Origin: Thozetella sp. PMI_491
Lineage: Eukaryota; Ascomycota; Sordariomycetes; Chaetosphaeriales; Chaetosphaeriaceae
Assembly (NCBI GenBank): GCA_021432635.1
Contig: MU270030.1
Location: 62,001 to 126,000, forward strand
Direction: 5' to 3'
DNA: 64,000 nt
Positions 39,667 to 62,005 of the stretch are shown piece after piece (position 1 is the stretch's first letter; every line of letters begins with the position of its first letter). A program made the translations under genes and the position numbers. The notes under the pieces are model-generated. The model was given only the letters and a program-made list of their open reading frames with translations, made no database searches and was not told the DNA's origin.

Positions 39667-41869
39667 ATGACATTCACCGGGTAATTATGTCCGCCCTCCG
39701 AAACTCTCCACACGTCTGGCTCTCTGACTGTGTTTAGATGCTGGACCTGCAAGGCGCGAAGGGTTCGGTGTGACGAGAGACCAGGATCATGTCGGAACTG
39801 TGCAAAGAAAGGCGTTGCCTGCGGTGGCTACGATATCAAATTGCAGTGGGTAGCCGACCCATTCGCCCAGCTCAGCGCAATGGCGCCAAGCACCCAAGGA
39901 CGACGAAGTATCCGACTAGGTACGGGCTATGACCGTCCTTCCGGTCTACGCATGCCTAAAGTTGACAAGTTCTTAGACAAAGTCATCGGCCAGAGGTACC
40001 GCATAGAGGAGATTGATAGTTTCATCTCAAAGATAGACAACAGCGCAGCTTCTGGGGTTTCGTCAACAGAGGGACCATTCTCAACTTTCCCTGTCCATGA
40101 CGGGGACCAAGGGCAAGGACAAACTCTGAGTGGATCGCTCCAAGATTGCCCTGTCTTTGTCGAAAGCCAGGAGGAGGAGAGCTCTGATCTATGGCTATTT
40201 GACGGACTTTCCCGACAGGACAATTTTAGTACAGACATCGCTTCCGAGATGGAGAGGAGAGAGCTTCATCTTGTTGCAGCACCGGCAATTTCCACCATGC
40301 CCCACGATTGGTCGGCCGATCCGTTTACTGGCATATTCGACATAGCTTTCATTGATGAAAGTGCTTGCGAGGCGGCTCAGACCAAGGTCGATGAGCACAA
40401 TACTGTGTCGGTGAACGAGGTATCGGGTACCAAACCACCCACCGTCGCCAGGTCTGCGAAACCCCAGGGCGATGACAATGCGCAGCAAACGGAAAATGCT
40501 ACGTCCCGGGAGGCCACCTCTGCCACCATCGAATCAGATCAGCCGCCTATCCGACATATTTCAAGTAGCCTATTTGGAAATATTGAGGTGGACAAGTTGA
40601 TGCACCATTACCGTGTGCATATTGCAGAGCTCCTTCAACCAGTTCTTCATCCTCACAATCCATATCACAACTTGTACTTTCCTAGCGCACTCGAAGGCGC
40701 TCACTTCTATACGTCGGGGGCGACTGGGAAAACAGCAAATGTACATTCGGCGCTGTATCACGCGGTGTCCGCCTCTGCAGCTTTCCATCTGTGGAACTGT
40801 GACGTAGCACAGACCAGGTACCGAAAGATTGGTGTTGAACATAAACAACATGCACTCCACTACCTCCAAGCGACAATAGAGTCCTCGAGGCCTGGCGCAG
40901 ACTACAAAATCGTCATCATGGTGATGCTGTCTCTAGTAACAGCAGGGGTGAGGCCTCCTCGATCTCTGGTTGGCATAGCCAAGACGATAGACTAACACGT
41001 GCTAGGTCATATCGGGCGATGATGACTTTGCTATGCATTTAGATGGAACAAAACAGTTGCGCAATTTGCGGAAACGCTGGAGAATCATGAGCAGCCAAAC
41101 TAGGCAACTGAACGACATCAGTACTTTTCTAACATTGATGGCTCGTACGATAAACTTCCAGCCCGTGCCATCGCCGGTGCTCGACAGCGGAAATGGCCAG
41201 CCCGCGGCTATGGAGGATGAGAGCATCGGGAGCGTCAATTTGGAATACATGTACGGCGTCACACCTACCATCGCAGCAGCCATCCAGGAGATATGCGGAC
41301 TTGCGGAACGCCTGGAACGCTATGACTGCAACAAAGAACAGCATCTCCTACCAGAAGACCTCCTTATGTCGTGTGAGGCCTTGGGCGACAAGCTTCTTGC
41401 CTGGAGCCTTGAGTCCGAGAAGCCAGTTACGATATCGGCGTCTGGCGAGATGTCCACCATTTTCAACTACCACGCAAATGCATGGCACTCAGCCGCATGG
41501 ATCTACTATTGTCGGCGCATACAACACTACAAGACCGAGGATCTCGCGGAAGAAGTAAGACGAGTCGTCGAGTATATGCATGCAGTCGAGGACACGAAAG
41601 TGAGCTCGAAATCCGACAGTACGAATAGGATGGCTCCGATTACATGGCCGATGTTTATTGCTTCGTGCCACGCGAAAGGGATCGAGCGAGATGCGTGTAG
41701 AAGATGGTGGGAGCGAGTTAGGCGGTACGGAATCGCAAATAATGAGAAGCAGTGGGTTATCGTACAAAAGATCTGGAAGAGAGAAGACGAAATGGAACCG
41801 AACGACTGCAGCATCACCATCTGGACTGATCTTTTTGACAGTTTAGGCAGCAGATTGCTGCCCATATAG
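39667..41869 (+). CDS. Zn(II)2Cys6 transcription factor, ArcA-like
   Basis: Three exons, 39667-39680 (14 nt only), 39738-40947 and 41006-41869, give 695 residues. The tiny first exon supplies the ATG and MTFTG; joined to exon 2 it makes GCWTCKARRVRCDERPGSC and the rest of a perfect cluster C6-x2-C9-x6-C16-x6-C23-x2-C26-x6-C33, followed by GGYDIKLQW (34-42). That trailing motif is typical of the ArcA group named after the Aspergillus arginine-catabolism activator. A long acidic/polar linker leads to a fungal-specific C-terminal domain (about residue 290 on: IEVDKLMHHYRVHIAELL). Expected role: nuclear regulator. It stands at the left end of eleven nitrogen-metabolism genes that include an agmatinase-type ureohydrolase, so it is the obvious candidate pathway regulator. 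Confidence 0.9.
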
Positions 41870-42113
41870 CTACCCGCTGCTTGCTGGTAATAAATAGAGA
41901 AAGAAAAGCCTGCAATCTGCAGCCTTCCAGCAGTGCTGCCATGACAAATAAATCCATGGTAGATGGGCTCGAAGTCTTCGTTTGTCAAATTTTACAATAT
42001 CGAATTATGGAAAGGTTGATCTATTTGATAACATCGTGCCAACTGCAGGTAAGGAGACTCTGATGGACCCACACAGCCTATTCCCTGAGACCCCCGTAAC
42101 CCATGAGCCTTAG

Positions 42114-42139
42114 TTACCTAGGTACTTCGTACCTACCTT
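42114..42139. promoter_or_regulatory. TACCTAGGTA-type motif array
   Basis: TTACCTAGGTACTTCGTACC and flanking bases contain palindromic TACCTAGGTA and repeated TACCT half-sites about 290 bp upstream of the class II aldolase start. Related arrays occur at 13074-13102, 44721-44730, 45115-45139, 49161-49170, 51417-51448, 51581-51597 and 57973-57985. It is either a regulator site or a dispersed short repeat. Confidence 0.4.
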
Positions 42140-42424
42140 GAAGGCACGCAAAATGAGCCTAGTCCAAACCCTTTTGTACGACATTCGGCATCTCCCCTGC
42201 GACCAATTTCTCACCCCTGGCTCGGAGTTGCCTGCTGAATCCGCGCAACTCCGGGAGTCTGTTTCCTATTATTGACGGATATTTGATTCGAGCAGAAACC
42301 GATGAATACTAGTACACCTGATACGAGCGTATAAGTGTTAAGCGTAGATGGGTGGCATTTTCATCTGCTCGCGATTGCGTCTGGCGGCGCCCGAACACAA
42401 CAACTTAGCCACACTGTAGCAACA

Positions 42425-43478
42425 ATGGCAGCTATAGCCGAGACCGAGACCGCGCCTTCAGTCTTGTACAGCAGGCTTTCGACCGAGCGCATCCATGTCG
42501 CGGACTCTTCGGACCAGGCAAAGAGACCCCGGGTAGAGGACACGTTCATAACTAGCCTCTGGACCCTCGACGGCAGTGGTAGCACGCTTGGGAGAAGCGC
42601 TCCCATAGAAGGCATTCCCATCTTCAAAGACGCCTACGAAAATCGCAAGTATGCTCTAGAGCACATGGCAGGAGCCTTTCGGGTAATTGCCCGAAAGGGG
42701 TATCTCGAAGGCACTGCGGGTCACATTTCTGTTCGAGATCCGGTTGATCCCGATACGTTTTGGATCAATCCGTAAGAAACATACCAAATCTGAACATCGC
42801 ATGTTTTTTGACACTTTTCCGACAGATTAGCGTATCACTTTGGGTTGATCAAGGTCAGTGATCTTGTGCAGGTCAACATGAAGGGCGATATTGTAGGAGG
42901 AAACCGCGTACGTCGTTCCCGTTGTTGACGTCCCAAGTCTCTCCTGCCTTCTAACACTGCGGAAGGCGTGCATCAATCTTGCAGGCTTCAATATCCACGC
43001 CGCTCTTCACCGTTTGCGGCCCGACGTACATGCCGCCTGCCACTTCCACAGCATACATGGGAAGGCTTGGTCATGCTTCAATCGCCCCTTGGAATTGTTG
43101 AATCAGGACTCTTGCACATTTTATAACGACCATGCCATCTACGATGCGTTTGGTGGTATTGCATTCGAAGCCGAGGAAGGCGCCAACATTGCCGCTGGGC
43201 TTGGTAACAAGCGGTGTGCGATTCTAAGAAACCATGGTCTTCTCACCACCGGGAAGACAGTTGATGAGGCGGCTGCCCTGTTTACATTGATGGAAAACAC
43301 GTGTCGTGTGCAGCTACTTGCAGAAACCTCTGCGGCGTCGGGGATCCCTAAGCATTTTTGCCCCCACGAAGAAGCGGAATACACCTACAGACTCACAACT
43401 CCGGAGGCGATGTGGCTAGAGTTCCAGCCCGATTATCAGTACGAGCTGCACAAATCGAAGGGGGATTTCTTGCTATAG
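42425..43478 (+). CDS. Class II aldolase/adducin-domain protein
   Basis: Three exons, 42425-42771, 42826-42907 and 42966-43478, give 313 residues. The second intron (42908-42965, donor GTACGT, branch CTAAC, acceptor GGAAG) is preferred because it restores CINLAGFNIHAALHRLRPDV, the conserved segment before the metal site. The zinc ligands lie in ACHFHSIHGKAWS and in RNHGLLTTGKTVDEA, with EHMAGAFRVIARKGY and GTAGHISVRDP at the N-terminal end of the domain. Expected role: metal-dependent cytosolic aldolase, decarboxylase or epimerase-like enzyme acting on a hydroxy-acid or sugar-like intermediate. It is tail-to-tail with the ketopantoate-reductase-like gene, 62 bp apart. In the cluster it could cleave a carbon skeleton after transamination and reduction (inference). 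Confidence 0.9.
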
Positions 43479-43540
43479 ACTTTCATTGAGAAATATGTTT
43501 ATCCTTTCGAGTGACCCTGCAGTTCGATGTGACAGCCACC

Positions 43541-44575
43541 CTAGGGATGCGCCGATTTGAACGTCTCTTGTTTTGCCTTGAGAAGCTCGTACAATATATC
43601 CAGAATGCAGGTCTTGACACCAAGCCTTCGTGCTATGCGCAATGGATTTCCCAGTATGACCTCGATCTCCATTGGCCGCCCCTTTATCGCATCAATTTGC
43701 ATGCTGGGCCTGAGGCGAACGTCCTTGTCGGTGAACATCATCATTTCCTCCTGGATCCCATCGCTCAATTTGTAGCCTGCTGCTTCTGCAACAGCCACTA
43801 TCTCATCCATCGCAGGACGTATCAAGGCACGGTTGCAGCCTGTATCCAGTATGGTCCCCGAGTCCACGTTGGTTAAAGCACAAACCGAATTGAAAGGGGA
43901 ATTCCATACGAGCTTTCGCCATCTGTGCCACACAATATCGTCCACAACAACACACTTGGAGCCTCCGGCCTCGTACAACTTGGAAAACCTGCTGCAAAAG
44001 TGGTCTTGATTCGCGCCTAGGGGGGCCGGCTGTGGAAATGGAGCAAGGTAGAGCACATCAGGGTCGTTATGCAGGACCTTGTGACCATTCAGCTCACAGC
44101 CTATCATTGTGACCCCGGAGAGAAGGATGCTTTCCGGAAATGCTTCGATGAAAGGCTGCTCTATATCAAGGCCATTCTGGATCAAAACGATGGATGTAAC
44201 TCGCGGGGTGATTGCCGTTTGGATAATCGCCGGGATAGAATAAACATCCGGTAAACTTTTCATGGCTACCACGACGTAATCGAACGGCCCATGGGCCAGC
44301 GAGTCTGGAACAGATTTCTCGACTTGTGAGCAGCCCGTTAGCTTGTTTCATTTGAAAGGATTGCCACCAGCTGTTTACGAACCATTGTCCGGCTTCCACT
44401 GCGGAATTTCTCCGTGCTCAATGCTCCGTATGTGGAAACCTAAAGACTTGACAGTCTCATAATTAGATCGAAGCACGACGGTGACATCGCAAAGACCTGA
44501 TTTGTGCAATTCAAAAGCACACATTGTGCCAACAGCACCACAGCCAACCACTAAAATTTTGGCTCGTGCTGGCAT
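43541..44575 (-). CDS. Ketopantoate reductase-like protein (ApbA/PanE)
   Basis: Two exons, 44575-44383 and 44322-43541, with a 60-nt intron (44382-44323) containing a GCTAAC branch site, give 324 residues. The start at the ATG at 44575 places the NADP motif KILVVGCGAVGTMCA at residues 6-20. The chosen acceptor restores WKPDNVEKSVPDS and then FDYVVVAMKSLPD, the usual order in PanE proteins. IVLIQNGLDIEQP (active-site lid) and the helical C-terminal domain with KLVWNSPFNSVCAL, where the lysine and asparagine are catalytic in the family, are present. Known reaction: NADPH reduction of ketopantoate; fungal paralogues also act in other 2-oxo-acid reductions. In this cluster reduction of a 2-oxo acid made by the aminotransferase is plausible (inference). 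Confidence 0.92.
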
Positions 44576-45425: not shown

Positions 45426-46730
45426 TCAGAGCTCTTCCTTTGACTTTTGTGATCTCCCCGCGTCTTTGGATATGACCTTCTCGAGAATCGGCTCAGCCTG
45501 CCACTGAGGGGGCTTGCGAGCGGGACCCAGGCCTCGCTCCTTCATGCCTCTGCTCACTATACTCGTCAACATCTCGTAGATGACCTGTGCGGCCGCCAAG
45601 GCTGTCTGCCCGCCTCCCCCGTCATACGACGGACTGACCTCGACGACGTCGGCTCCCACAATGTTCAAGCCCTCCACGCCGCGGAGAATCCGAATTAATT
45701 CTCTGGTCGTCCAGCCTCCCGGCTCCGGCGTCCCGGTCCCTGGAGCTAGACCTGGGTCGATCACATCGATGTCGACGGATAGGTACACCGGAATTTCCGT
45801 GCCCATTCTCTCCATTATGATATCAATGATGCCCTGAGCCCCAATGTCATCGATCATGTCCGCCTCGATTCTCACAAACCCCTGACGTGAGTCGTCTTCG
45901 TAATCGCCGTAGTCGTTCCCGGCGAGTCTACTTCGCAAGCCGCCGTGAACGGAGCTCCCGTTGCGGATGAGCCCCTCGGAGCTAGCCATCCAGAACATGG
46001 TACCGTGGGTGAAATCGGACTGGGAATGCTCATCCTCCGGAATCCAGGTACTGGGGTATTTGCCTGGGTGTAAAGTATCTAGATGTGCATCGAAATGAAG
46101 CACGGCGATAGGCTGGTCGTACGCCTGCTTGAGTGCACGGAGAGCGGGAAGAACGACGCTATGGTCCCCTCCCAGGGTGATAAGCTTCGGCTTCACTCCA
46201 GGAGTTGTGGATGGCCGAGAGAGAAGTTCTTCGTAAGCAAGCGTCATCTGCCGGAGCGCGAGGTTGTTATCAAATGGGGTAATTGGGATATCGCCGCAGT
46301 CGATGATGGAGGCCCACGAATGGAAAGGATTGATCCCGGCACGGTGATTGAAGCCGCGGAATGACGTCTGACGACCTGATGCCGCTCGAATGGCACTTGG
46401 GCCAAACCGAGCCCCGGGCCGGTAGCTAACAGCCGTGTCGAATGGGGCCCCGATGATGCTTACATCAAACACCTGAGACGGCACGGTTAAGCATCGAACG
46501 TGTTTTAGGTGGGCGAAAGTTGCTATGCCGGAAAATGGCCACTTTCTCTGTCAGTCTTGGTAGCTGAAGATGACCACCATTATACTCACATCTGTTCCCC
46601 ACATGGCTTCCAGCTCATCCAGACGTCCGTCATCAGGTTGGTCGTTGTGAACGGAGTGTCCGTAGACGGCATGCCGACGACACAGCAGGGCTAGGAGAAT
46701 TGAGTCTCTCAGATATCGCTGAATTGCCAT
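45426..46730 (-). CDS. Agmatinase-type ureohydrolase (arginase family)
   Basis: Two exons, 46730-46590 and 46541-45426, with a 48-nt intron (46589-46542), give 418 residues. Splicing restores [20 protein letters not shown], the conserved N-terminal block of fungal agmatinase-like proteins. Manganese ligands are complete: His174 (GGDHS), Asp198, His200 and Asp202 (DAHLD), Asp304 and Asp306 ([10 protein letters not shown]); [10 protein letters not shown] lines the active site. [12 protein letters not shown] is the usual agmatinase segment. The first about 25 residues (SILLALL, then AVYGHS) look like a weak secretory leader, as in many fungal homologues. Known reaction: release of urea from agmatine or a related guanidino compound. 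It is next to an amine oxidase, which would accept the resulting amine. Substrate preference within the family is uncertain. Confidence 0.93.
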
Positions 46731-47205
46731 CCTGAAAATTTGCAGGCCTGTTAGAATAGAGTCGGTGACGAGGGACGGGTGGGTGCATATATGCATCATC
46801 CAAATTGGAAATAAACAGCTAATCCACTGGCGCCGGCCTAGCGCATTGCATGCTTTAGGGCTGGCGAAACGGGAATGCATCGGAGCTAGGACGCTCTAGC
46901 CCCCAACAAGGCACCAGGATCCCTACGTCTCTCGGCATTTCTTTCCTTATCGATGGGGCAGAGCCTGTTTTTTCCGGACTTCAAACCGTCTATTAAGGAG
47001 CTGCCAGGCTCTAACAGATCTTGCATCGACTCTGGGTGGCTCCAAAGAGGATTTTTCCGTCTGCTTACGTGTAGTAGTGGCCGCTTGTCTCTGGTGACAT
47101 CCGTCTTGTCTTGCTACAGGTTTAGGGCCATCGCATATTTACAACTTTTTTTAGAGCACCTGTGATTCATACTCGATAGTTCACGTGAAGAAATCGGTCA
47201 AACTA
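46731..47205. other. Intergenic region (ureohydrolase promoter)
   Basis: 475 bp between the ureohydrolase start and the 3' end of the amine oxidase gene, both on the minus strand. No gene is supported. It must contain the ureohydrolase promoter; one CTTATCG (CGATAAG) GATA-type core is seen at about 46947. Confidence 0.45.
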
Positions 47206-48679
47206 CTACAAGCGCGTGTCATCCGATGACAGGCTCTCCATCGCTTGTGCGGCTCCGCGCTTCCCACTTCGCAGTGCCCCTTCCATATACCCACGCCACT
47301 CATTCGTGAGTTCGGTTCCGACAAAGTAGATGCCATGGAAGCTCTCATGAACCCGCTCGCCGTCGTCCCCAGCGCCTATGGTACCGGGAGGGCCGGTGGC
47401 AACGGGACAACCCCACCCAGCCCATGGGTCGTTTGTCCAGTCCGAGGTGACAGATCCCAAGAACTCGGATTTGACTGCCTCATGGCCCACGGCAAATAAG
47501 GAGCCTAATTGCTTCAGCACAGCTTCCCTGCGGTCATTTTCATCCAGGGCCAACCACGCTCGCCCGGGCCCCGCACACATGAAGCACGCCAGCGCGTAAT
47601 TTCCCTGCTCATCGACAGAGACATCCCTACTGTGGTTGACCGGGCCCCGAAAGCTCTGTACCAAGCCACATGCACCCTGCTGTCGCCAGAAAGGGGTTTT
47701 AAACAGGCAAATAAACTTGACAAAACATCCGTAGCGCGCGGTCGTGATGTACACCTGTTTATGGCGAGGCAACGACGGGCTGAAGGTTACATCCTTGTAT
47801 GCAGGACTGGGGATACTGATAATGACTCTTCGTGCCTTGAATGTCTTGCTAGCTGTGGTGGTCACATCGTATAGCTTTGAAGTCTGTCGTACAATCGAGC
47901 TTACTGGAGAATCGAGCTTGAGTGATCCCGCAGGCAGCAGGTCCGCCATACCAATGGAGATGGATTGTGTGCCATTACAGAGACGAAGATGCTGTGCTCC
48001 GTGCTTATCGTCGGACCGTAGGTTCACAACACCAAGCCCACCGCGGCAGATCTCCAGGTAGGCAAGAGCGGACACGTCGCTTGCATCTTGGCCGAGTGTA
48101 CCGCGGCACCAAAGCCGGGCCGTAAGCAGGGCAAGGCGACCCGCGCCCCCATCCCGGCACCATTGCTCAAATGTGATGTTATCAAGCTCAGTACGTTTTG
48201 GCTGTTTGAAGTTTTCAGGCTGAAGTGATGCGGCCTCGACTCTGTCACGCATTGCTTGAATATTGTCGACGTCTGCAGCTTCGAACTGGAGGCGGGATAA
48301 GCGTTGAGGTCATACTGTTCGCTATAGTAGGGGGCCAAATTATAGCGCATACCATCGGTGTCGTGCCGAACGGAAAAAAGTGACATTTCCCATCCAAGTC
48401 TTCGCTGGCTACTAGGCCTTTGATGTTCTGCACGACGGGATGCAGGCCAAATCTCTCGCAGTAACCCCAAACAAGCGACTGGTTTGTGTCGTTCAGCCAG
48501 GCTGCCCCGACCTCCTGTACCCCGCGTCCGTCTAGGCGCTCGACCGAGAGTGTTTTTCCGCCGACACGGTTGCGAGCCTCAAGCACAAGCACCGAACGAC
48601 CGGCGTCGTGCAGATCTAATGCTGCCTGTAAGCCGCTCAGGCCAGCTCCAACGATGATTACGTCAAGGACGTCTGCCAT
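47206..48679 (-). CDS. Flavin-containing amine oxidase (MAO-like)
   Basis: Two exons, 48679-48353 and 48285-47206, with a 67-nt intron (48352-48286), give 468 residues. The FAD dinucleotide motif VIIVGAGLSGLQAALDL (8-24) is followed by EARNRVGGKT (about 34-43) and GAAWLN. The C-terminal FAD-contact block reads GIYFVGTELTNEWRGYMEGA, as in fungal MAO-N-type enzymes; no C-terminal membrane anchor or peroxisomal tripeptide is evident (ends DDTRL). Expected reaction: oxidative deamination of a primary or secondary amine to an aldehyde, ammonia and hydrogen peroxide. It is directly upstream of the agmatinase-type gene on the same strand, making putrescine or a related diamine a natural candidate substrate (inference). 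Confidence 0.93.
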
Positions 48680-49397: not shown

Positions 49398-51332
49398 CTA
49401 CCAATTCTCAATGACCTCTCTGTCGGTGCTTCCACCCGCTGTCTCTGTGGCAGCAGCCAGTAGATCGTCTTCCCGTAGAATATCATCAATCTTAGCCCCG
49501 TCCGCAATGGCCCAAAAATCGGCACAAGCCGCCACAAAGGACAGCGTCTTGGACGACAGCGTTCTTTCCTCGACCGCTGCGAAGCAGAAACGTAGGAACC
49601 GGAAGCCGCCAGTGTCCTTGACGGCGTCCGTCGCCGCAAAGTCCCCGCCTGGTACCGTCAGTATTCTGTAAGGATGGCCGGTGCAGAAGGTCCACAGCGC
49701 CAACATTAACCTCTTTGGATCAACCTGTGACGCGAGAGAGTGATTATGAATCTGAATCTGGACCCAGAGGAACATCCCGCCCATGGGCCAAGCGAAGCTG
49801 AACATCTCCACTCGACCCGTCTCGTTGGTGATGAATCTCTTCTCTTCGAGAATGGTAGCCATTGTCATCATGCGGCGTTCGTTCGTTGAGCGAAGGCCGG
49901 CGAGCCAGTCAACCCATCCCTTCACCCCCCACGTCGCCGCCTGCTCACCAGCATCCACAAATGCAGCTTCGCCGTGAGAATGGCCGCCGAAGTCACCCAG
50001 CAATTTCGCCACGACGGCTTGTGTTAGCCCAGAAGGCTGCTGGCTGGTCCCATCGGTTATACGAAAGAGCTGCTCGCAGACGCTAGGCTGCGCAGTGAAC
50101 CAGCCTAGCCGGCAACCCGGCGCAATGGTCTTGGAGAAAGAATCAAGCCGGATTACGCGCCCATCGTTGTCAATACTGAGAAAACTTGGTGGTAGCTCGT
50201 CTAGGAATGGGTATCCGGTTGATCGACCGCCCAGGGACTCTTTAAGGTAGTTGTGATGCGGGTCAGCAGGAAAATTCGGAGACACTGGAGTTCCACGGTG
50301 CTTCAACGAGTTTGTGTTTGCGGAGGCGTAGTAGAGATTCCAGTATGGATCATCTTCGATAATGATGATGTCGAATTGCGAGCAAATCTTATAAATGTCC
50401 TGACGCCTGGGGAGAGAGAGCACGCTAGAAGTCGGATTTTGACCCGTTCTATAGTTTTCTCTCGTCTTAGTCTGCCGGCCCGGATGAAAAGAAAAAAAAA
50501 CGAGGAAAGTTGGAGACCAGCTGGGATGAGAAGAACTCACGGTATGAGATACAAAACGTGGGGCATTTTGCCTCGGGACACGTCCCAGTTTTTTACGACA
50601 TCAAGAAGCCCGCCGGGTCCGTGGGCTAACAGCCCTTCCATGTCCATTTTTACAGGCACAACATTTACGTCTTTCGGTCTGATCTGGGCAATTGGGGGCG
50701 CATAGACAAACTCTTCCACGAGTAAACCCTCTCGGTCCGAAAAGTCGTTCACGTCTTGGTCCCAAGGGTTGAAGAGGAGCTCGTAGATTTTAGCAAGCCC
50801 GTCCGCCGACCCTCCGTTGATTAGGACGTCAGCACCGCCGTCGTAGGGTATGTTTGGATGGTATACCGAATTGGCTAGCTTTTTGAGCCATGCATGGAGA
50901 GGTGGATATCCTTGGGCGCTACCATATTGAAGTGCGGTGTCCAGATCGATGCGGCGGATAGAGTTTGGACCGGCAGCGGTTCGCGGAATCCGCAGATTCG
51001 ACGCGGCCATATTTCCCACTTCTGGACGAGAGTTCCCTGGGTCCGGGCCACGAAGGCTCCCTGGCGCGACGGTTAGAAGCTCCATCGTGTCGAATGGAAA
51101 GTTCCCGGGAAAGGGCAAGCCTAAGCGCGATGTCAGATAGCAAGTCTTGAAATCAGATCAAAAGTCGCTGATAGCAATGGAGAAACATGCCTCCGGCTAG
51201 ATTGCCCATTTCGGGGATGCGAAGGAATCTGTAGTACTCCTTGAGGACATTTGGGGCTCGCTTTTTAGAAGCCTTCGAGAAGTGATGCGCAAAGCTCCGC
51301 GGCTTCGGCCGCAACTGATCCTGGTTCTGCAT
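49398..51332 (-). CDS. PLP-dependent aminotransferase, aromatic/aminoadipate (ARO8) type
   Basis: Three exons, 51332-51191, 51120-50541 and 50448-49398, give 590 residues. Intron 1 (51190-51121) begins GCATGT and is a GC-AG intron: it joins MGNLAGG to LPFPGNFPFD, the conserved N-terminal arm of ARO8-type enzymes. The alternative start inside exon 2 would lose this arm. Intron 2 is GT-AG and restores YLIPTGQNPT. The PLP lysine is Lys347 in SFSKTIAPGCRLGW, preceded by IIIEDDPYW. Fold type I, dimeric, cytosolic. Known reactions: transamination of aromatic amino acids, kynurenine or 2-aminoadipate. It shares a 491-bp divergent promoter with the SDR gene. In the pathway it would convert an amino acid to a 2-oxo acid (inference). 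Confidence 0.93.
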
Positions 51333-51823: not shown

Positions 51824-52888
51824 ATGCCTTACCAACTGAAAGGCCGACGCGTACTTGTGACGGGCGGCAGCCGAGGTCTCGGTGCACTCATCTGCGAGAA
51901 GTTTGCCGAACAAGGTGCCCATGTGATGGTGAACTACGTCGTCAACGAAGAGTCGGCTCGCAAAGTCGTCAAGCGTGTAGAAGACCATGGAGTCAATGGG
52001 TTTCTCGTCCAAGGGGTCAGGCCCCCTGGCGGCGCTTTGTCCCCTCTTGGCCCGCTACCATGCAGTCGACTGACTGTTCACAGGACGCGGGTATAGCGGA
52101 AGACAATGCCCGCGTTGTCAAGGAAACAGTCGAGAAGTTAGGCGGCTTGGATATCCTGATAGCCAACGCTGGATGGACCAAGTTCTCGGACTTCAAGGAC
52201 CTTAATTCGTTGAGCTTGGATGAGTGGAATAAGGTGCGTTCTCTCAATGACCAGAGCCTGATTGCTCATTTCTCGCTCAAAACTTACGATCGTAGTGCTG
52301 GGCGACCAACACTCTGAGCCATCTCCAGCTCATGCAGCATGCTGGGCCAATTTTCAATGCCAATCCAGAGGGTGGTGTTTATCTCATCACTTCGTCTATA
52401 GCAGTACGTGTTGGTTCGTCCTCGTGTTAGGCGCTCTTGGCTAACCCTTTTACCTCTTAGGGCTGTACACAGAGCGGAAGCAGCATGGCGTACTCAGTAA
52501 CGAAAGCAGCGGGGCTTCACTTGATGAAGTGCCTGGCTGCCACCCAAGGACCAAAGCTGCGAATCAATGCGATCCTTCCCGGTCAGCTCTTGACAGAGTG
52601 GGCAAGTTTCTTCCGTGTTGCTGTTACTATCGGTGGCTAGATATCTAACGGCTCCAAGGGACTGCGATTCACCGAAGAGCAGCTCGCAGAGGAGAAAAAT
52701 GAGTCTATACTGAAACATGAGGTTGGTTCGAGAAACCTTTCCCACTAGCGTTGCCTAACACATGATTGTAGACCTACCTCGACGACTGCGCTGACACATA
52801 CATAATGGCGGCAAAAAACAACTCTATGACAGGTCAGCAGATCGCCATAGATGCCGGCCTTGTTACGGCATGGGGATCCCGTTTCTGA
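51824..52888 (+). CDS. Classical short-chain dehydrogenase/reductase
   Basis: Six exons, 51824-52015, 52084-52233, 52296-52403, 52461-52601, 52659-52721 and 52772-52888, give 256 residues in one frame. VTGGSRGLG (12-20) binds NAD(P), LIANAGW follows in exon 2, Ser147/148 (LITSSIA) and Tyr161-x3-Lys165 (YSVTK) form the catalytic triad, and INAILPG and the C-terminal AIDAGL are canonical. Intron 4 (52602-52658) is a GC-AG intron with the ideal donor GCAAGT, needed to join LLTEW to GLRFTEEQL. Expected role: cytosolic NAD(P)-dependent oxidation of an alcohol or reduction of a carbonyl. Divergent from the aminotransferase with a shared promoter, so it probably acts in the same pathway. Substrate unknown. 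Confidence 0.93.
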
Positions 52889-54196: not shown

Positions 54197-56058
54197 ATGG
54201 AAACCAATCAACCCGAGAAGAGTAGTCCCATGTCAGACAACGGCAGCGCAGCCGATGTCGAGGTCATTCCTCTTGCGCCGACTGATAACAGCCAGACTCA
54301 GCGCGGCTTGAGTCCCCGACACGTCCATCTGATGGCCATCGGCGGTGCTATCGGCACAGGTCTCTGGGTAGGTCATTAACAGAATCCCACTAGGCCACAT
54401 GAAAGACAGTATTGAACAAGGTTCTAACCGCGTGAAATGTGTACAGGTGGGCATTGGCAGTATCTTGAAATCGTCTGGCCCGCTGACTCTGCTGCTCGGA
54501 TACTCTTTCTGGAGTATTTTTTACGTCTGGCCCCTTTATATGTGTGTAGGCGAAATCTGCGCATACCTTCCGGTCCGTGGATCCATTTTCCATCTTGCCT
54601 CTCGCTTCGTCGATCCGGCCATGGGTTTCTCCATGGGCTGGTCCTACTTCTTCGCTAGCAGCATGCTGGTCTGCACCGAGTTCGCTGCGGTCGCCACCGT
54701 TATACAGTACTGGGACACAACCATTAATCCCGCGGCGTGGGTCGCCATATCTCTCTTCGTCTGTGTCGCTGTGAATGCCGTTGCGGTCAAGTACGAATCT
54801 GTCTTTATCGCCTTTGCTAGTTCCACTCGTTAACGTTCTGTTCTGAGCATAGATTTTATGGCGAGTCTGAATTCGTCATGGCCGTTACCAAGGTCCTCCT
54901 CCTGGCAGGCCTTGTCCTACTCACAATCATCACTATGAGTGGCGGCAACCCCCATCACGACGCATATGGCTTCCGGAACTGGGGCAATGGAAACGCAATA
55001 CTTGAGTATTACTCGACAGGCGCCACAGGGCGCTTCCTTGGATGGTGGAAAGTCGTCATTTACTGCGCATTTTCGATTGCCGGACCAGACCCGATCGCTC
55101 TCGCTGCTGCTGAAATACAGAACCCACAACGAACGATCCCCCGTGTTGTCCGCCTCGTTTTCTACCGTGTTGTTGGTTTCTATATCATCGGCGTCTTGTG
55201 CGTAGGGATTATTTGTTCTGCATCTGACCCAGGCCTAATCAGTGCCATCAGCTCTGGCGCATCCGGCGCCGGGGCATCTCCTTGGGTCGTTGGCATCCAA
55301 AATTTAGGCATCAACGGGCTCCCTAGCTTGATAAATGCCCTCATTATGCTCTCCGGGTGGTCCTGCGGGAATGCATACATGTATACCTCCTCACGCACTC
55401 TATATGGCTTAGCGAAAGGTAAACCCCAAGACTCGAATGCCTTATCAGCTCCAAATCTCACAAACCTATTACAGACGGTCAGGCACCCAAGTTCCTCGCA
55501 AAGTGTACCAAGTCTGGCGTGCCTATCTATTCCGTCCTTGTTGTTACACTGATTACCTCCATTACTTTCTTGGTGCCATCCAACAGCGCCATTACGGTAT
55601 TCTTGTGGTTTATCGACCTCACAACCGGCGCATTGGTTGTGTCCTACACCATGATGCTCGTAACCTACGTTGGCTTCTATCGAGCACGCACGGTACAAGG
55701 CCTCGACCCCTCTACACTCCCTTACCAAGCCCCATTTGGCCCATGGATCGCTTATGTTGGCATCTTCTTGGGATGTCTAGCGCTCCTAACCATGGGATGG
55801 AATTATTTCGTCCCATTCGATAAGAACGATTTCGTTACATCCTACTTTGCGCTTGCCTTCGGCTTTGTTACGTACTTTGGGTGGAAGATCATGAAGCGCA
55901 CAAAACTTGTGAATCCGGCAGAAGCTGATCTTATCGGTGGTAAAAAGGAGATTGATGATGAATGCCGTCACTGGGAGGAAGGCGGATTGTTGGAAGTGGA
56001 GAGAGAAAGGCTGGCACAGTTCAGTTTTGCCAGACGCTGCTGGGAACGCCTCTGGTAA
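54197..56058 (+). CDS. Amino-acid permease (AAT family, APC superfamily)
   Basis: Four exons, 54197-54367, 54447-54790, 54853-55418 and 55475-56058, give 554 residues with about twelve membrane helices. The ATG at 54197 starts a polar N-terminus (METNQPEKSS). MAIGGAIGTGLWVGIGSIL (built across intron 1) is the helix-1 signature. FYGESEFVMAVTKV (across intron 2) and LYGLAKDGQAPKFLAK (across intron 3) are conserved in fungal general, proline and dicarboxylic amino-acid permeases. EIQNPQRTIPR is the usual loop after helix 6. The C-terminal tail is acidic then basic and cytosolic. Expected role: proton-coupled import of an amino acid or related nitrogen compound at the plasma membrane. It is the only importer in the cluster, with clustered GATA sites upstream. 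Confidence 0.94.
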
Positions 56059-56715: not shown

Positions 56716-57933
56716 ATGTATCTCGCTCAAACAGACCAGACAGATGCAGAAATTTCTTCTGCTCCCGGTGCACTTGCACCGGACCTTTCTTTGGACAGCG
56801 CAGTTGATTTGACTCGGGCCCTGGTCAAGATAAATTCTGCCAACACTTCACATGGGATCACTCCTGGCCCAGGGGAGGTCCCTATTGCTCGGTTCATAAC
56901 GGCTTGGTTTCACCAAAGAAACATCGAAACACATTGGATTGAGCTTACAAGCGGACGACCTTCGGTGGTAGCCATCGCACGAGGATCTGGTGGTGGCAAA
57001 AGTCTAATGTTCAATGGCCACCTAGACACGGTCACGACGGCATCGTACCTCGGTGACCCTCTGAGCGGAAGAATCGAAGATGGAAAGGTTTATGGTCGAG
57101 GGTCTGCGGACATGAAAGGCGGGCTTGCAGCTGCCATGGTTGCATTGGCAGCGATTAAAGACCTCAGCCTTGGCGGGGATGTGATATTTGCCGGCGTGGC
57201 GGACGAGGAAGATGGCAGCATCGGAACCGAGCAGCTGCTCGAAAACGGGTGGAGAGCCGATGCAGCCATTGTGAGCGAGCCCACGGACCTTGATGTTGTT
57301 ACCGCCCATAAGGGTTTTGTAACCCTCGAAGTGAATATCAAGGGGGTTGCTGCCCATAGATCTCGCCCAGAACTCGGTGTAGATGCGATATCCAAAGCCG
57401 GTTATTTTTTGGTAGAGCTAGACCGCTACGCTCAACGATTACAACAAAAGACCGATGACTCGGCGGTAGGACCTCCAAGTGTACACGCCTCGGTCATTAA
57501 AGGAGGCGACGAGATATGCTCCTACCCAGCCTTGTGCACCATATCTCTAGAACGTCGTACCGTACCAGGTGAGACTGCAGAGACGGTGCGACAAGAGGTG
57601 TGCGGCATACTGGAAGACCTTGAAAAAAGCGTCCCGGGCTTCCAATATGACTTAAAGATCACTTCTACGAGGCCCTCATTCGAAATACCTATGGAACATC
57701 CGCTGGTTTCCCTAGTGAGCGAAGTGGTAGGCGACTATCTTGGTGGAAAGCCATGCCTCCGAGGGGAGAGGTTCTGGACAGATGCGGCCCTTCTCGCCGC
57801 GGCCGGCATCCCAACACTATTGCTGGGCCCTCGAGGTGAGGGCCTGCATGGCACGACAGAATGGGTCGACGCAGACTCCGTGCACGCACTGGCCGGATTG
57901 CTAACAACCATCGCGGTACGGTTTTGTCGGTAG
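56716..57933 (+). CDS. M20-family metal-dependent hydrolase (ArgE/DapE-like)
   Basis: Intronless, 405 residues from the ATG at 56716; the frame upstream opens only with a TTG. Two-metal site: His102-x-Asp104 (FNGHLDTV), Asp132 (GSADMKGG), Glu164-Glu165 (DEED) and the C-terminal His in GLHGTTEWV. The lid/dimerisation insert is marked by VAAHRSRPELGVDAI. These match the acetylornithine deacetylase/succinyl-diaminopimelate desuccinylase group. Expected reaction: hydrolysis of an N-acyl group from an amino acid or amine in the cytosol. Fungal arginine synthesis normally uses a different acetylornithine enzyme, so a catabolic or specialised deacylase role is likelier. In this cluster it could free an amine or amino acid from an N-acyl conjugate (inference). 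Confidence 0.93.
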   Translation: MYLAQTDQTDAEISSAPGALAPDLSLDSAVDLTRALVKINSANTSHGITPGPGEVPIARFITAWFHQRNIETHWIELTSGRPSVVAIARGSGGGKSLMFNGHLDTVTTASYLGDPLSGRIEDGKVYGRGSADMKGGLAAAMVALAAIKDLSLGGDVIFAGVADEEDGSIGTEQLLENGWRADAAIVSEPTDLDVVTAHKGFVTLEVNIKGVAAHRSRPELGVDAISKAGYFLVELDRYAQRLQQKTDDSAVGPPSVHASVIKGGDEICSYPALCTISLERRTVPGETAETVRQEVCGILEDLEKSVPGFQYDLKITSTRPSFEIPMEHPLVSLVSEVVGDYLGGKPCLRGERFWTDAALLAAAGIPTLLLGPRGEGLHGTTEWVDADSVHALAGLLTTIAVRFCR

Positions 57934-58633: not shown

Positions 58634-59837
58634 ATGGAGACACTTCGAAGAACGCGGCCTGACGGTACGGAGGAAATTCGAACTGGACTAGGATGGCGAG
58701 CCGTTGCGCTGCAGGACAAAGATTCCTTACTCGAAATCCCAATCGTCGACCTAGCCGACATGTACCACGAAGATATCAACAAGCGCAAGGTTGTTGCTAA
58801 AGCAATGTGTGACGCCTGCATAAACTTTGGCTTCTTCTACGCCAAAAACCACGGGCTTCCCGATGACGAAGTCGCTAGGGTCTTTGCTGATGCGAAGCGG
58901 TTCTTTTACGACCTGCCGCTCGAGGAAAAGCTGGAGCTCGACACGGCGAAACACGAGCACTACTGGGGATATTATCCAACTCGGGTGGATACGGAGCACC
59001 CAGCCGGAAATAGTAAATATCTGCGGCCTAGTGCAAACATATCCAGATTTGCCGAGTCGCTAACTCCATAATGCGTAGATCTCAACGAAGGTATGAACTT
59101 TGGATACGAACCATCAATCGACCCAGAGGCGCGAGAGGGTGCCCAGGGTTTCAACTATTGGCCGAGGGAAAGCCGACTGCCCGGTTTTCAGGCCAGCACT
59201 AAAGAATACATGACCCGAGTTTTGACCTTGAGCCGCACGATGATCCGGATGTTCGCCCTCGGACTCGACTTAGACGAGCATTATTTCGACCACATGGTGA
59301 CTGAGCCGTACTCGATTCTCAAGATGTGCTTCTATCCCGCGTCGGTGGGAGAGGCGGCTAGCCCATCCAGCCTGCGGCCACATACCGACCCGGAGCTGCT
59401 CACTATCTTGCTACAAGATGATATACCCTCTTTAGAGGTCTTATCGAGCTCCGGAAATTGGATCTCGGCGAAGTCTATCCCGGGAACTTTTGTCGTCAAT
59501 GTGGGGGATTCCATGTCGATTCTGACCAACGGTGCTTTCGTTTCCACGATGCATCGAGTGCGCAACTCTTCGGGACGCGATCGCTACTCGGTTCCATTCT
59601 TCCTAGGTGGTACGAAACACAATGGCGACCTCAAAAGTGCAAGAAAGCCCCGTAGCTAACGTTTCGACAGCCAATCGAGAGGCAGAGCTCAACGCGCTTC
59701 CAAGGTTTGTAAGCTCCGAGACTCCCGCACGTTTCCGCCCAATTTCTTCGGAAGACTACATCCGCCGCGCTCTCCAGCTGTATTACTCAAAATCCGGAGT
59801 TGAGATGGACCTTGAGACCATTGAGACTAAAGCTTAA
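58634..59837 (+). CDS. 2-oxoglutarate/Fe(II)-dependent dioxygenase (IPNS-like fold)
   Basis: Three exons, 58634-59012, 59079-59606 and 59671-59837, with introns of 66 and 64 nt, give 357 residues. The DIOX_N-type region (IPIVDLADMYHED, CDACINFGFFYAKNHGLPDD, about 35-75) is followed by the double-stranded beta-helix core. The iron ligands are His228-x-Asp230 (LRPHTDPELL) and His285 (TMHRVRN); Arg295-Tyr-Ser297 (RYSVPFFL) binds 2-oxoglutarate. Splicing restores SVPFFLANREAELNALP. Expected reaction: hydroxylation, desaturation or oxidative cleavage of a small molecule. It is convergent with the amidase gene and downstream of the M20 gene on the same strand. Hydroxylation of an amine or amino-acid intermediate is plausible; substrate unknown. 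Confidence 0.93.
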
Positions 59838-60113
59838 ATTTTCCAACGAGATGGTGAATGAACCTTTGGGTCTACGTTCTATCTAAAGATATTGCAGCTT
59901 AGTCTCTTTATTTAGCTCTGCAACTGATAACACAAGTTGACAAGAATCTTCTAAACAAATATAGAACTAGTTTGGTTTCATGTAAATATATTTCCCTCTA
60001 CGGAGGGGTTTGAATGTGCAATTCACTACAATATATAAATTGATGGGTGTTTAGACATTTAAAACTTACTGTAAGTTATTGATTTTGATTAAAAAATTTA
60101 GCTCAGGATGTTG
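59838..60113. terminator. Convergent 3' flank, AT-rich
   Basis: 276 bp between the 3' ends of the dioxygenase and amidase genes. It is AT-rich, with several A/T tracts and TTTAAAACTT-like segments, as expected for overlapping polyadenylation regions. No gene is supported. Confidence 0.4.
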
Positions 60114-62005
60114 CTATTTTCTGCCAATAGCTCGCTCAATCTCCACCAAAGCAGCAATGACCTTTTCCTCCTGGTATCTGCGACCAACTATCTGTAAGTT
60201 CACTGGGGCATCCGCGTATTTCTCCGGGCTATAAAGATTGTAACAAAACTTATCTTCCTCATTCAGCGGTGTGTAGCTTTCGTCTTTCTTGTCTGCGTCC
60301 GGATCCACGGCTGTGACTGGGAAGACAACTGCAGGATAATCCAGCAGGTTCCACTGCGACGTATACCCCCAGTATCGTGATTGATCGTGTGGTGTGGCTG
60401 CGCCGAATGATGGTGGGCAAAGAATCACGTCGACCTCCTTGCCATTTGCACTGGCCGTATTGCTCCAGTGGCGGGCGTACATCTCACGATACGAGTCGCG
60501 CTCCGCGCACAGCTAGGCACGCAGGTTAGCAAGTCCCGCTGTACGAAAAGAAATTGGTAAAGAAGCAGAGGGTATTAGCGTATACTTGCCTTCCAAAGGT
60601 GAAAAATGTCGCACTTCTTGACGGTTTTTTGTTCGTTGATGATGAACTCGGTCAGCGGCAAGACCGGTTCACCTCCTTCCTTTAGTAGCCCGAGGACCTC
60701 TTCTCCGCCGTCCGGCCAATAGAGCGCCGCAGTGATGTCCCAGGCCCTCTTGTGGTCTAGGTCCTCGCATTTCCATTCGACCACCTCCATCCCTGCGTTC
60801 TTACAGGCCTCGGAGACCTCGTGAAGCGCTCGGATCATGGGAGGATGAGGCTTAACCACGCCGTCCCACCACTGGACGGCAACTCTAATCGGGCTCGAGA
60901 ATCTGTAGGGTGTCCACTCCTTGACCACTAGCGAAGGGTCTAGACGCCATGGTTGGGATGCCAGAACCACTTTCATGAACAATTCTATGGAGTCTCGGTT
61001 CGCAGCCATCGGGCCGAGGGTCGAATGAATGGTTTCTCGTCCAATCATGTGAGACCGTTGACCACCACAGGGGATTCGCTTCGAAGTCGGCCTGCTACAG
61101 TTAGATTCTCGCGAATGCCAGGCGCTCTCGGGATTTTACTTGAAGCCGTAGATCCCACTGTGTGCTGCCGGGCAGCGAATGCTTCCCCCAATATCTCCAC
61201 CGACACCCTGACGCAGTGCTGTTAGATAGGCAAGCCCGCAAGCCGCGCGGATCATAGATTTCCTTACCAGGAGGCTGCCACGCATCCCAATCAAGGCTCC
61301 TTCACCCCCGCTACTACCGCCAGGCGTTAGGTCGCGGTTGTATGGGTTCACTGTCCGTCCATATATGTTACTGTGGGTTTCGAGGTGCATGATAGTCTGC
61401 GGTTGGGTAGTACGTGCATAAAATACGCAGCCAGCATCCCATAAGGTGTCGTACAAGGGATTGGACCCATGAGGCCTACCCACCCAGGCGACGTACGACG
61501 CGTTGGAAGTTGCGTTTGCGCTCTTGGCTCCATGATGCTCTTTCGTAGACACCGGCAGTCCATGCAAGGGTCCGCAAGGTTCCGGCAGTGAGTCGAGATA
61601 TCGAGCTCGCTCGATTGCCTCATCCCACAGCAGCTCGGTAAGGCAATTTGTCTACAGCCGGCAGGGTTAGTTGAGTGACAAGAGGATTTGAATGGTAAAA
61701 GAAGGCGAAGGATCACTGACTGCAAGGTGAGCCACCGCTGCTCTACGCAAAAAGGCTCTCGCGACTTCCTCTGCCGACACTTGGCGAGTTCTCAGCCTCT
61801 CTAGTAGTTCCGTCGCTGAGTAAGCCTGGGTAAATTCCAATTCCCTCTCTGTAAGTACTATCTTCGGCAGCTCTTGGGAGTTCCGAGGCAAAGGATCCGG
61901 CAAGCCCATGAGGGGGGGCTGGACTTGCTTCAGCGACTCGTCTCGCCGGGCCCTTGCTATCGATGCCTTAGCTTCCCAAGGCTCTTTACTTCTGCTGTCA
62001 GCCAT
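60114..62005 (-). CDS. Amidase-signature family hydrolase (FAAH/acetamidase-like)
   Basis: Five exons, 62005-61721, 61651-61268, 61207-61140, 61091-60590 and 60512-60114, give 545 residues, the usual fungal acetamidase length. The catalytic triad is Lys132 (VSTKEHHG), cis-Ser208 (GGSSGGEGAL) and nucleophile Ser232 (GGDIGGSIR); the 24-residue Ser-Ser spacing equals that of FAAH. The last intron (60589-60513) is a GC-AG intron with donor GCAAGT, required to join HLWK to LCAERDSYREMY. No signal peptide, so cytosolic. Expected reaction: hydrolysis of a carboxamide to acid plus ammonia or amine. At the right end of the nitrogen cluster it could release an amine from an amide conjugate (inference). 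Confidence 0.93.

What the first reader, a model, noticed from the sequence alone, without database searches (positions are those of the whole stretch)
39667..62005. Eleven-gene nitrogen-compound cluster: candidate guanidino/amine conjugate catabolic pathway
Eleven consecutive genes each encode a nitrogen-metabolism function: ArcA-like regulator, class II aldolase, ketopantoate-reductase-like enzyme, agmatinase-type ureohydrolase, flavin amine oxidase, ARO8-type aminotransferase, SDR, amino-acid permease, ArgE/DapE-type M20 hydrolase, 2-oxoglutarate dioxygenase and amidase. No unrelated gene interrupts them. The order of chemistry is coherent: import, amide or N-acyl hydrolysis, urea release, amine oxidation or transamination, then reduction and aldol cleavage. 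I know of no described fungal cluster with this content. Substrates worth considering are acylated agmatine or other plant phenolamides, and opine-like or guanidino amino acids. A biosynthetic cluster is the main alternative, although no NRPS, PKS or terpene synthase is present.
Basis: partly seen in the sequence, partly recalled or inferred. Interest (0 to 1): 0.85.

Follow-up and report, generated by a model that had tools for sequence, protein, structure and literature searches.

The report
Fungal gene cluster scavenging guanidino nitrogen
Eleven neighbouring genes in a fungus look like a nitrogen-scavenging pathway for arginine-like compounds, and the supposed aldolase in it is probably an oxygen-using decarboxylase that works with its neighbour.

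Summary
The eleven genes are real, intact and uninterrupted in the genome of Thozetella sp. PMI_491. The cluster has a smaller sibling on contig C117 that shares regulator, "aldolase" (ALD), ketopantoate-reductase-like enzyme (KPR), permease and ureohydrolase (41.6, 80, 60, 37 and 50% identity) plus an M20 hydrolase and a 2OG/Fe dioxygenase of other families. ALD and KPR share a contig in 5 of 9 species found in both best-120 protein lists. The regulator's two close paralogues both sit beside a ureohydrolase gene or remnant. GATAAG, the core site of nitrogen-control GATA factors (recalled), is the hexamer best enriched in the promoters of both clusters jointly.

I propose aminotransferase, KPR, ALD, ureohydrolase: arginine, 2-oxoarginine, (R)-2-hydroxy-5-guanidinopentanoate, 4-guanidinobutyrate, then GABA and urea. 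Clustering and nitrogen control are supported; step order and substrate are inferred. A new variant of known fungal nitrogen-catabolic clusters.

The parts
39667..41869 (+). TF: Zn2Cys6 + Fungal_trans_2 (PF11951) regulator, 695 aa; exons 39667-39680, 39738-40947, 41006-41869
   Evidence: close own-genome paralogues on C117 (43% in the longest segment) and C8 (36-41% by segment), both beside a ureohydrolase gene or remnant
42425..43478 (+). ALD: PF00596 protein, 313 aa, TqaM/NovR type with three metal His (169, 171, 233) and Gly150 in place of the aldolase Glu; exons 42425-42771, 42826-42907, 42966-43478
   Evidence: 43% identical to TqaM over 261 residues
43541..44575 (-). KPR: ketopantoate-reductase-family 2-oxoacid reductase, 324 aa; exons 44383-44575, 43541-44322; convergent with ALD, 62 bp between the two genes
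   Evidence: (TIGR00745 186.1 bits, cut-off 141.35)
45426..46730 (-). URE: ureohydrolase (agmatinase/guanidinobutyrase family), 418 aa, hydrophobic N-terminus (by eye) and C-terminal KEEL; exons 46590-46730, 45426-46541
47206..48679 (-). FAO: flavin amine oxidase of MAO-B/putrescine oxidase type with Cys402 at the covalent-FAD position, ends -TRL; exons 48353-48679, 47206-48285
49398..51332 (-). AT: Aro8-type aminotransferase, 590 aa; exons 51191-51332, 50541-51120, 49398-50448; first intron GC-AG
51824..52888 (+). SDR: classical short-chain dehydrogenase, 256 aa; exons 51824-52015, 52084-52233, 52296-52403, 52461-52601, 52659-52721, 52772-52888
54197..56058 (+). PERM: amino-acid permease (PF00324), 554 aa; exons 54197-54367, 54447-54790, 54853-55418, 55475-56058
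   Evidence: closest own-genome paralogue on C46 (66-79% by segment)
56716..57933 (+). M20: ArgE/DapE-family hydrolase, 405 aa, one exon
   Evidence: TIGR01910 242.1 bits, cut-off 217.6
58634..59837 (+). 2OG: Fe(II)/2-oxoglutarate dioxygenase (DIOX_N + 2OG-FeII_Oxy), 358 aa; exons 58634-59012, 59079-59609, 59671-59837
   Evidence: HxD...H at 228, 230, 285
60114..62005 (-). AMI: amidase-signature hydrolase (PF01425), 545 aa; exons 61721-62005, 61268-61651, 61140-61207, 60590-61091, 60114-60512 (the 60-nt in-frame intron 61208-61267 is inferred)
38900..39666 (.). Stretch upstream of the regulator, 5 GATAAG sites; one of ten cluster promoter stretches that together hold 14

Best explanation
The eleven genes are a nitrogen-catabolic cluster under a pathway regulator and general GATA-factor nitrogen control. 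Its conserved heart is regulator, TqaM-type decarboxylase (ALD), 2-oxoacid reductase (KPR) and ureohydrolase, with a permease. Proposed working: PERM imports an amino-acid-like guanidino compound; M20 and AMI free it from acyl or amide conjugates. AT removes the alpha-amino group to give a 2-oxo acid, and KPR reduces this to the (R)-2-hydroxy acid. ALD uses O2 and a three-His iron site to cleave it to CO2 and the acid one carbon shorter. URE then releases urea. For arginine this reads arginine, 2-oxoarginine, (R)-2-hydroxy-5-guanidinopentanoate, 4-guanidinobutyrate, GABA plus urea. FAO, SDR and 2OG would process side substrates or the released amine. Shown: gene identities, intact reading frames, linkage, the sibling cluster, promoter enrichment, loss of the aldolase residues. 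Inferred: that ALD decarboxylates, that it follows KPR, and arginine as substrate. Rough odds: functional unit 0.85; catabolic 0.7; KPR-then-ALD 0.5; arginine or a close guanidino acid 0.3.
For: Sibling cluster C117: TF, TauD, ALD, KPR, PERM, URE, M20D, with ALD-KPR again convergent. ALD and KPR with equal contig length in 5 of 9 species present in both best-120 lists; locus tags two apart in Rhinocladiella mackenziei and five apart in Neonectria ditissima. ALD best PDB matches are TqaM 235 bits, 9n43 225, 4xxf 205, NovR 183, against about 40 for E. coli-type FucA entries. FucA E73 to G and Y113 to Q in ALD, TqaM and 11 relatives, three His kept. TqaM decarboxylates a 2R-hydroxy acid (PMC11880133 passages) and NovR/CloR use a 3-His iron site on 2-oxo and 2-hydroxy acids (PMC13111500 passages). 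URE scores best against proclavaminate amidinohydrolase and guanidinobutyrase. GATAAG: 14 seen, 2.9 expected in the window's promoters (rank 2 of 1956 hexamers); 6 seen, 1.0 expected in C117's (rank 4 of 1425). All three loci of the TF clade (C16, C117, C8) have a ureohydrolase gene or remnant. On C80 a 2OG dioxygenase lies beside a ureohydrolase, with a permease-like gene next to it. A ketoarginine-to-4-guanidinobutyrate route is described for K. lactis (PMC7439472 passage).
Against: The C117 sibling lacks AT, FAO, SDR and AMI, and its dioxygenase and M20 are of other families, so these may not belong to the core. None of 22 distant bacterial ALD relatives (31-38% identity) has a KPR match in the DNA held, at most 6 kb on each side. 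In 4 of the 9 shared species the listed ALD and KPR have different contig lengths. ALD passes the NCBIfam model named class II aldolase/adducin family protein (301.4 bits, cut-off 255), which is a family label and not an activity. URE has a hydrophobic N-terminus (by eye) and KEEL, so it is probably ER-luminal, while I noted no such signal on ALD or KPR; the product would have to cross a membrane. TqaM's natural substrate is a 3-amino-2-hydroxy acid, not a guanidino acid. AT is Aro8-like, a broad family with no sign of arginine specificity. No CGG dyad is enriched in the promoters. GATAAG is missing from 5 of the 15 promoter stretches, among them ALD and KPR of the window. AGGTAC is even more enriched than GATAAG in the window's promoters and is unexplained. 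Linkage of all eleven genes in any other species was not testable.
Confidence: 0.4

Rival explanations
1. A small biosynthetic cluster: TqaM-type ALD, KPR, dioxygenase and aminotransferase build a non-proteinogenic (perhaps guanidino or alpha,alpha-disubstituted) amino acid or a small alkaloid without an NRPS.
For: ALD's best characterised relative makes 2-aminoisobutyrate. A 2OG dioxygenase is present, as in the tqa route. AT has a weak NCBIfam match to MppQ of enduracididine synthesis, 75.7 bits against a cut-off of 540. The close ALD subfamily is patchily distributed.
Against: No NRPS, PKS, terpene synthase or TqaF-like HAD hydrolase among the eleven genes. Amino-acid permease, ureohydrolase and GATA enrichment fit nitrogen use. 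AT's match to Aro8 (189 bits) is far stronger than to MppQ (51 bits).
Confidence: 0.25
2. Two or more adjacent, separately working modules: a conserved guanidino module (TF, ALD, KPR, URE, perhaps PERM) and an unrelated amide/amine module (FAO, AT, SDR, M20, 2OG, AMI).
For: Only five of eleven genes have homologues in the C117 cluster. The nearest own-genome paralogues of PERM (C46) and M20 (C16:1119 kb) lie elsewhere.
Against: The C117 sibling also carries an M20 hydrolase and an Fe/2OG dioxygenase, though of other families. GATAAG occurs in 7 of 10 window promoter stretches, spread over both halves.
Confidence: 0.3
3. Free-guanidine route: the 2OG enzyme hydroxylates arginine or homoarginine like EFE or plant homoarginine-6-hydroxylase, releasing guanidine, and URE is a guanidine hydrolase.
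For: The 2OG enzyme's best PDB match is Anc357, a reconstructed relative of the EFE family. A 2OG dioxygenase lies next to a ureohydrolase again on C80. Two 'agmatinase 2' entries, which I recall as guanidine hydrolases, are among URE's matches.
Against: Anc357 itself has depressed EFE-type activity and large changes at the arginine site (PMC12329707 passages). The metal Asp-to-His spacing is 55 residues, too short for the EFE loop 209-237. URE scores 178 and 176 bits to proclavaminate amidinohydrolase and guanidinobutyrase against 125 and 104 to the 'agmatinase 2' entries.
Confidence: 0.08
4. Chance neighbours: nitrogen genes that happen to lie together.
For: Several of the families are large in this genome: 83 permease and 90 amidase exon-level matches.
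Against: Sibling cluster, ALD-KPR linkage in other species, and joint promoter enrichment.
Confidence: 0.05

Closest known systems
Kluyveromyces lactis arginase-independent route (arginine, ketoarginine, guanidinobutanal, 4-guanidinobutyrate), as described in the discussion of PMC7439472 (passages read)
   Same: A transaminase and a guanidinobutyrase-family ureohydrolase at the two ends; same proposed intermediate, 4-guanidinobutyrate.
   Different: There the oxo acid is decarboxylated to an aldehyde and oxidised. No decarboxylase of that kind and no aldehyde dehydrogenase family was found among the eleven genes; KPR plus a TqaM-type protein stand in the gap. I know of no report of clustering there.
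TqaL/TqaF/TqaM of tryptoquialanine synthesis (PMC11880133, PMC10764440; passages read)
   Same: ALD is 43% identical to TqaM over 261 residues, with the same three His and the same Gly for the aldolase Glu.
   Different: No NRPS or HAD hydrolase among the eleven genes; the 2OG enzyme was not compared with TqaL; a KPR partner could supply the 2-hydroxy acid in place of TqaF.
Aspergillus niger and Candida parapsilosis guanidinobutyrases (PMC10833137, passages read)
   Same: Length (418 against 422 aa in A. niger) and broad family; the A. niger sequence itself was not at hand.
   Different: URE is in a separate clade from the genome's own other copy on C13; substrate untested.
NovR/CloR (PMC13111500, passages read)
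   Same: Same protein family with a 3-His iron site; oxidative decarboxylation of 2-oxo and 2-hydroxy acids.
   Different: NovR/CloR do both steps alone on an aromatic substrate; here a reductase sits next door.
Aspergillus nidulans hxn nicotinate cluster (recalled, no call)
   Same: A fungal nitrogen-catabolic cluster with a 2OG dioxygenase, an SDR and an amidase.
   Different: No xanthine-dehydrogenase-like or cyclic-imide hydrolase gene among the eleven.

Membership tests
Class II (fuculose-phosphate) aldolase | Catalytic Glu (E73 of E. coli FucA; its role is recalled) | tested here: not met
   Gly in ALD, in TqaM and in the 11 other aligned relatives (FucA)
Class II (fuculose-phosphate) aldolase | Three metal-binding His (H92, H94, H155; roles recalled) | tested here: met
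   H169, H171, H233 of ALD
NCBIfam class II aldolase/adducin family (NF004855, subfamily) | Score above curated cut-off | tested here: met
   301.4 bits against 255; a family label that TqaM-type proteins may share
TqaM/NovR-type non-heme iron oxygenase | Three-His site without the Glu, and closest sequence relation | tested here: met
TqaM/NovR-type non-heme iron oxygenase | O2-dependent oxidative decarboxylation of a 2-hydroxy acid | not testable with these tools
   needs enzyme assay
Fungal guanidinobutyrase/agmatinase family | Arginase-fold metal motifs (GGDHS, DAHLD, DIDVIDP) | tested here: met
   present in URE; near-identical motifs in the C117 copy by eye
Fungal guanidinobutyrase/agmatinase family | ER-type signals: hydrophobic N-terminus and C-terminal K/R/H-D/E-EL | tested here: met
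   URE ends KEEL; 116 of 122 rows (best 120 hits plus C117 and C13 copies) end so; N-termini judged by eye on a part of them
NCBIfam agmatinase (TIGR01230, equivalog) | Score above curated cut-off | tested here: not met
   163.3 bits against 174.3
Guanidinobutyrase | Activity on 4-guanidinobutyrate | not testable with these tools
   needs enzyme assay
Ethylene-forming enzyme | Long loop 209-237 with Glu215 between the metal Asp and His | tested here: not met
   Asp-His spacing 55 residues in 2OG; loop described in PMC12329707 passages; EFE's His268 recalled
tqa-type biosynthetic cluster | NRPS and TqaF-like HAD hydrolase alongside the TqaM homologue | tested here: not met
   none among the eleven genes nor among the seven of C117
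GATA-factor-controlled nitrogen-catabolic cluster | GATA sites enriched in promoters | tested here: met
   against a crude non-coding control and shuffles
GATA-factor-controlled nitrogen-catabolic cluster | Induction when nitrogen repression is lifted | not testable with these tools
   needs RNA-seq
Arg81/ArcA regulators | Zn2Cys6 plus PF11951 domain | tested here: met
   closeness to Arg81/ArcA within this large family is recalled, not tested

The most novel reading that the evidence does not exclude
KPR and ALD form an oxygen-dependent chain-shortening module: a 2-oxo acid is reduced to the (R)-2-hydroxy acid, then cleaved by a three-His iron enzyme to CO2 and the acid one carbon shorter. 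Coupled to an aminotransferase and a ureohydrolase it would be a new arginine (guanidino-acid) catabolic route in fungi that needs neither thiamine decarboxylase nor aldehyde dehydrogenase.
Probability: 0.27. Interest if true: 0.7.

Novelty: new variant of a known kind. Interest (0 to 1): 0.48.

Why it matters
Many of the fungal relatives listed are labelled class II aldolase or fuculose-phosphate aldolase, yet the 12 aligned here lack the aldolase Glu. If this subfamily works as a decarboxylase next to a 2-oxoacid reductase, a common mis-annotation is corrected and a testable amino-acid chain-shortening route appears. It would also suggest how some filamentous fungi could make 4-guanidinobutyrate, and it offers a defined locus to test GATA control of guanidino-nitrogen use.

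Tried and rejected
Rejected: aldol cleavage by ALD. EFE-type ethylene/guanidine chemistry as first choice. TqaM-style 2-aminoisobutyrate synthesis, since a HAD hydrolase and an NRPS are absent from the eleven genes.

Led nowhere: bacterial neighbours of ALD relatives (22 loci, 0 with a KPR match in the up to 6 kb held on each side). CGG dyads in promoters (none enriched at the threshold set). AlphaFold model of ALD from the 12-row alignment A1: mean pLDDT 37.9, used for no fold search. Rfam: no match in 36000-64000. The first gene finder was over-trained; left free it chained or missed genes, but bounded by homology it gave usable models. A smoothed one still chained genes when left free and was used bounded. 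Literature: no paper held 4 of the 5 terms ketopantoate reductase, class II aldolase, gene cluster, fungal, agmatinase; one held 5 of 6 related terms, an Ashbya metabolic re-annotation seen only in the listing. ER targeting of fungal agmatinases is not new: a Fusarium graminearum agmatinase with an H/KDEL signal enriched in an ER fraction (PMC5347122 passage) and S. pombe Agm1/Agm3 in the ER (PMC12479844 passages). C. albicans Agt1 and Gbu1 were predicted secreted (PMC7439472 passages).

Limits: other fungal genomes could not be opened, so eleven-gene synteny is untested. In the other 4 of the 9 shared species the lengths differ, which may reflect different assemblies. GATAAG was first seen in a broad dyad scan, then ranked against all hexamers; the control is crude, being stretches of 200 bases or more without ORFs of 90 codons. 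Of nine ureohydrolase loci listed in the genome I read five (C16, C117, C8, C13, C80). Permease-like genes on C8 and C80 and the genes flanking the cluster were named by eye, without a family search, and the first two gave no match to PERM.

Full report
Observation. The window is fungal: contig C16:62001-126000 of a 72.3-Mb assembly whose proteins are those of Thozetella sp. PMI_491. Pfam on reading-frame fragments identifies all eleven functions. Splice models built by script and by eye give eleven intact proteins. ALD, KPR and URE are identical to the public proteins; the other eight were not compared. The stated coordinates are exact at both ends. Left of the cluster lie an aldehyde-reductase-like gene (36923-38190), an MFS transporter and a HET-domain-like protein (ORFs); right of it a LysM/GH18 chitinase-like gene (ORFs). 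These neighbours were named by eye.

A sibling cluster. ALD, KPR and URE each hit contig C117. The 90 kb of C117 that I read (20001-110000 of 111,610) hold, in 59.8-72.2 kb, TF, TauD dioxygenase, ALD, KPR, permease, ureohydrolase and an M20 hydrolase, in that order. Identities to the window's genes: TF 41.6%, ALD 80%, KPR 60%, URE 50%, PERM 37%; TauD and the M20 of C117 have no BLASTP match at 1e-3 to the window's 2OG or M20. AT, FAO, SDR, AMI, 2OG and M20 have no tblastn match at 1e-4 on that 90 kb. In both clusters ALD and KPR are convergent neighbours. Of 18 ALD, 9 KPR and 9 ureohydrolase loci listed in the genome, only C16 and C117 have all three together (the tool calls such counts lower bounds).

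Other species. Among the best 120 ALD and best 120 KPR relatives, nine species appear by name in both lists. In five (Thozetella itself, Xylariales sp. PMI_506, Colletotrichum costaricense, Neonectria ditissima, Rhinocladiella mackenziei) the two proteins share a contig length; in Neonectria and Rhinocladiella the locus tags are five and two apart. In four (Pachysolen tannophilus, Clonostachys chloroleuca, Penicillium atrosanguineum, P. malachiteum) they do not. The close ALD subfamily (68-81% identity) is spread patchily over about eight genera.

The regulator. In the own genome the TF has two close paralogues, C117 (43%) and C8 (36-41% by segment); the next match is at E 3.6e-9. On C8 a permease-like gene precedes the TF paralogue and a ureohydrolase remnant follows it. 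So all three loci of this TF clade carry a ureohydrolase gene or remnant. On C80 a permease-like gene, a 2OG dioxygenase (24% to the window's) and a ureohydrolase are neighbours. The permease-like genes of C8 and C80 gave no match to PERM. The copy on C13 sits among genes with no match to the other ten. I read five of nine ureohydrolase loci.

ALD is not an aldolase. Its PDB matches are TqaM (235 bits), 9n43 (225), a protein named fuculose-1-phosphate aldolase 4xxf (205), NovR (183), others from 98 bits down, and the L-fuculose-1-phosphate aldolase entries at about 40. Aligned with E. coli FucA, TqaM and eleven relatives, FucA E73 is Gly and Y113 is Gln in every other row, while H92, H94 and H155 are kept; the roles of these FucA residues are recalled. 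TqaM turns a 3-amino-2R-hydroxy acid into 2-aminoisobutyrate by decarboxylative oxidation (PMC11880133, passages). NovR/CloR use a three-His iron site to decarboxylate 2-oxo and then 2-hydroxy acids with O2 (PMC13111500, passages). That ketopantoate reductases yield (R)-2-hydroxy acids is recalled, and matches the stereochemistry of TqaM's substrate. Hence the proposal that KPR feeds ALD.

URE. It matches proclavaminate amidinohydrolase (178 bits), guanidinobutyrase (176), agmatinases (152-157), guanidinopropionase (155) and two 'agmatinase 2' entries (125, 104), and misses the NCBIfam agmatinase cut-off, 163.3 against 174.3. In a 122-row tree (best 120 hits plus the C117 and C13 copies) it falls in a six-row clade (SH-aLRT 100) with Colletotrichum tamarilloi and unnamed sequences, inside a 35-row group (97) whose named members are Chaetothyriales (order recalled). 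The genome's C13 copy groups with Xylaria and relatives (99) (quick method, no bootstrap). So it is not a recent local duplicate of C13; old paralogy or horizontal transfer are both open. 116 of 122 rows end in [KRH][DE]EL, fitting published ER location of some fungal agmatinases.

Other enzymes. FAO aligns with MAO-B and putrescine oxidase, with a Cys at the covalent-flavin position and Pro where MAO-B has Tyr398 (residue roles recalled). AT is Aro8-like. M20 passes the ArgE/DapE family cut-off. The 2OG enzyme is nearest to Anc357 of the EFE reconstruction paper, but lacks room for the EFE loop. None of these fixes a substrate.

Nitrogen control. A scan of hexamers in ten promoter stretches of the window cluster (6,905 bases) against 21,763 bases of crude non-coding control ranks GATAAG second of 1956 (14 seen, 2.9 expected). 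In five promoter stretches of C117 (2,495 bases) it ranks fourth of 1425 (6 seen, 1.0 expected). By summed rank no other hexamer does as well in both. Against dinucleotide shuffles, 0 of 300 and 2 of 300 reach the observed counts. It is absent from the ALD, KPR and M20 promoters of the window and the KPR and M20D promoters of C117. GATAAG as the core of AreA-type sites is recalled. AGGTAC ranks first in the window cluster, is not among the top eight in C117, and is unexplained.

Reading. A fungal route arginine, ketoarginine, guanidinobutanal, 4-guanidinobutyrate is described for K. lactis (PMC7439472, passage). The cluster has both ends of such a route, an aminotransferase and a guanidinobutyrase-family enzyme, and between them KPR and a TqaM-type protein rather than a decarboxylase and aldehyde dehydrogenase of the usual kind. 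I therefore propose reduction followed by oxidative decarboxylation. What speaks against it is in the Best explanation section: no AT in the sibling, no bacterial linkage (0 of 22), ER-type targeting of URE, and unknown roles of several genes.

Verdict. A real cluster with a conserved core, probably nitrogen-catabolic. New variant of a known kind.

Noticed in passing
G000:C8:488272-493535 (L057): Permease-like gene (by eye), TF paralogue and a C-terminal ureohydrolase remnant side by side: perhaps a decayed relative of the cluster.
   Followed up: partly
G000:C80:139016-144800 (L061): Permease-like gene (by eye), 2OG/Fe dioxygenase and ureohydrolase as neighbours, another combination of the same functions.
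   Followed up: partly
window 45426-46730 and its best 120 relatives: This fungal ureohydrolase family carries C-terminal KDEL-like signals almost throughout (116 of 122 rows); two papers place members in the ER.
   Followed up: partly
window 45426-46730: The cluster ureohydrolase groups with Chaetothyriales rather than with the genome's C13 copy; Rhinocladiella (Chaetothyriales) also has ALD and KPR two locus tags apart. Horizontal transfer is possible.
   Followed up: partly
window promoter stretches within 38900-62700: AGGTAC/GTACCT is the most enriched hexamer in the window cluster's promoters (15 seen, 1.9 expected) and is not among the top eight in C117.
   Followed up: no
window 47206-48679: The amine oxidase ends in -TRL, which resembles a peroxisomal targeting signal (the resemblance is recalled).
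   Followed up: no
window 49398-51332, 51824-52888 and 60114-62005: GC-AG introns in AT (first), SDR (fourth) and AMI (last) models.
   Followed up: no
window 36923-38190: Aldehyde-reductase-like gene (by eye) directly left of the regulator; could be a twelfth member.
   Followed up: no
L060 (G000:C16:124001-132000): LysM/GH18 chitinase-like gene (by eye) to the right of the amidase marks the likely cluster edge.
   Followed up: no
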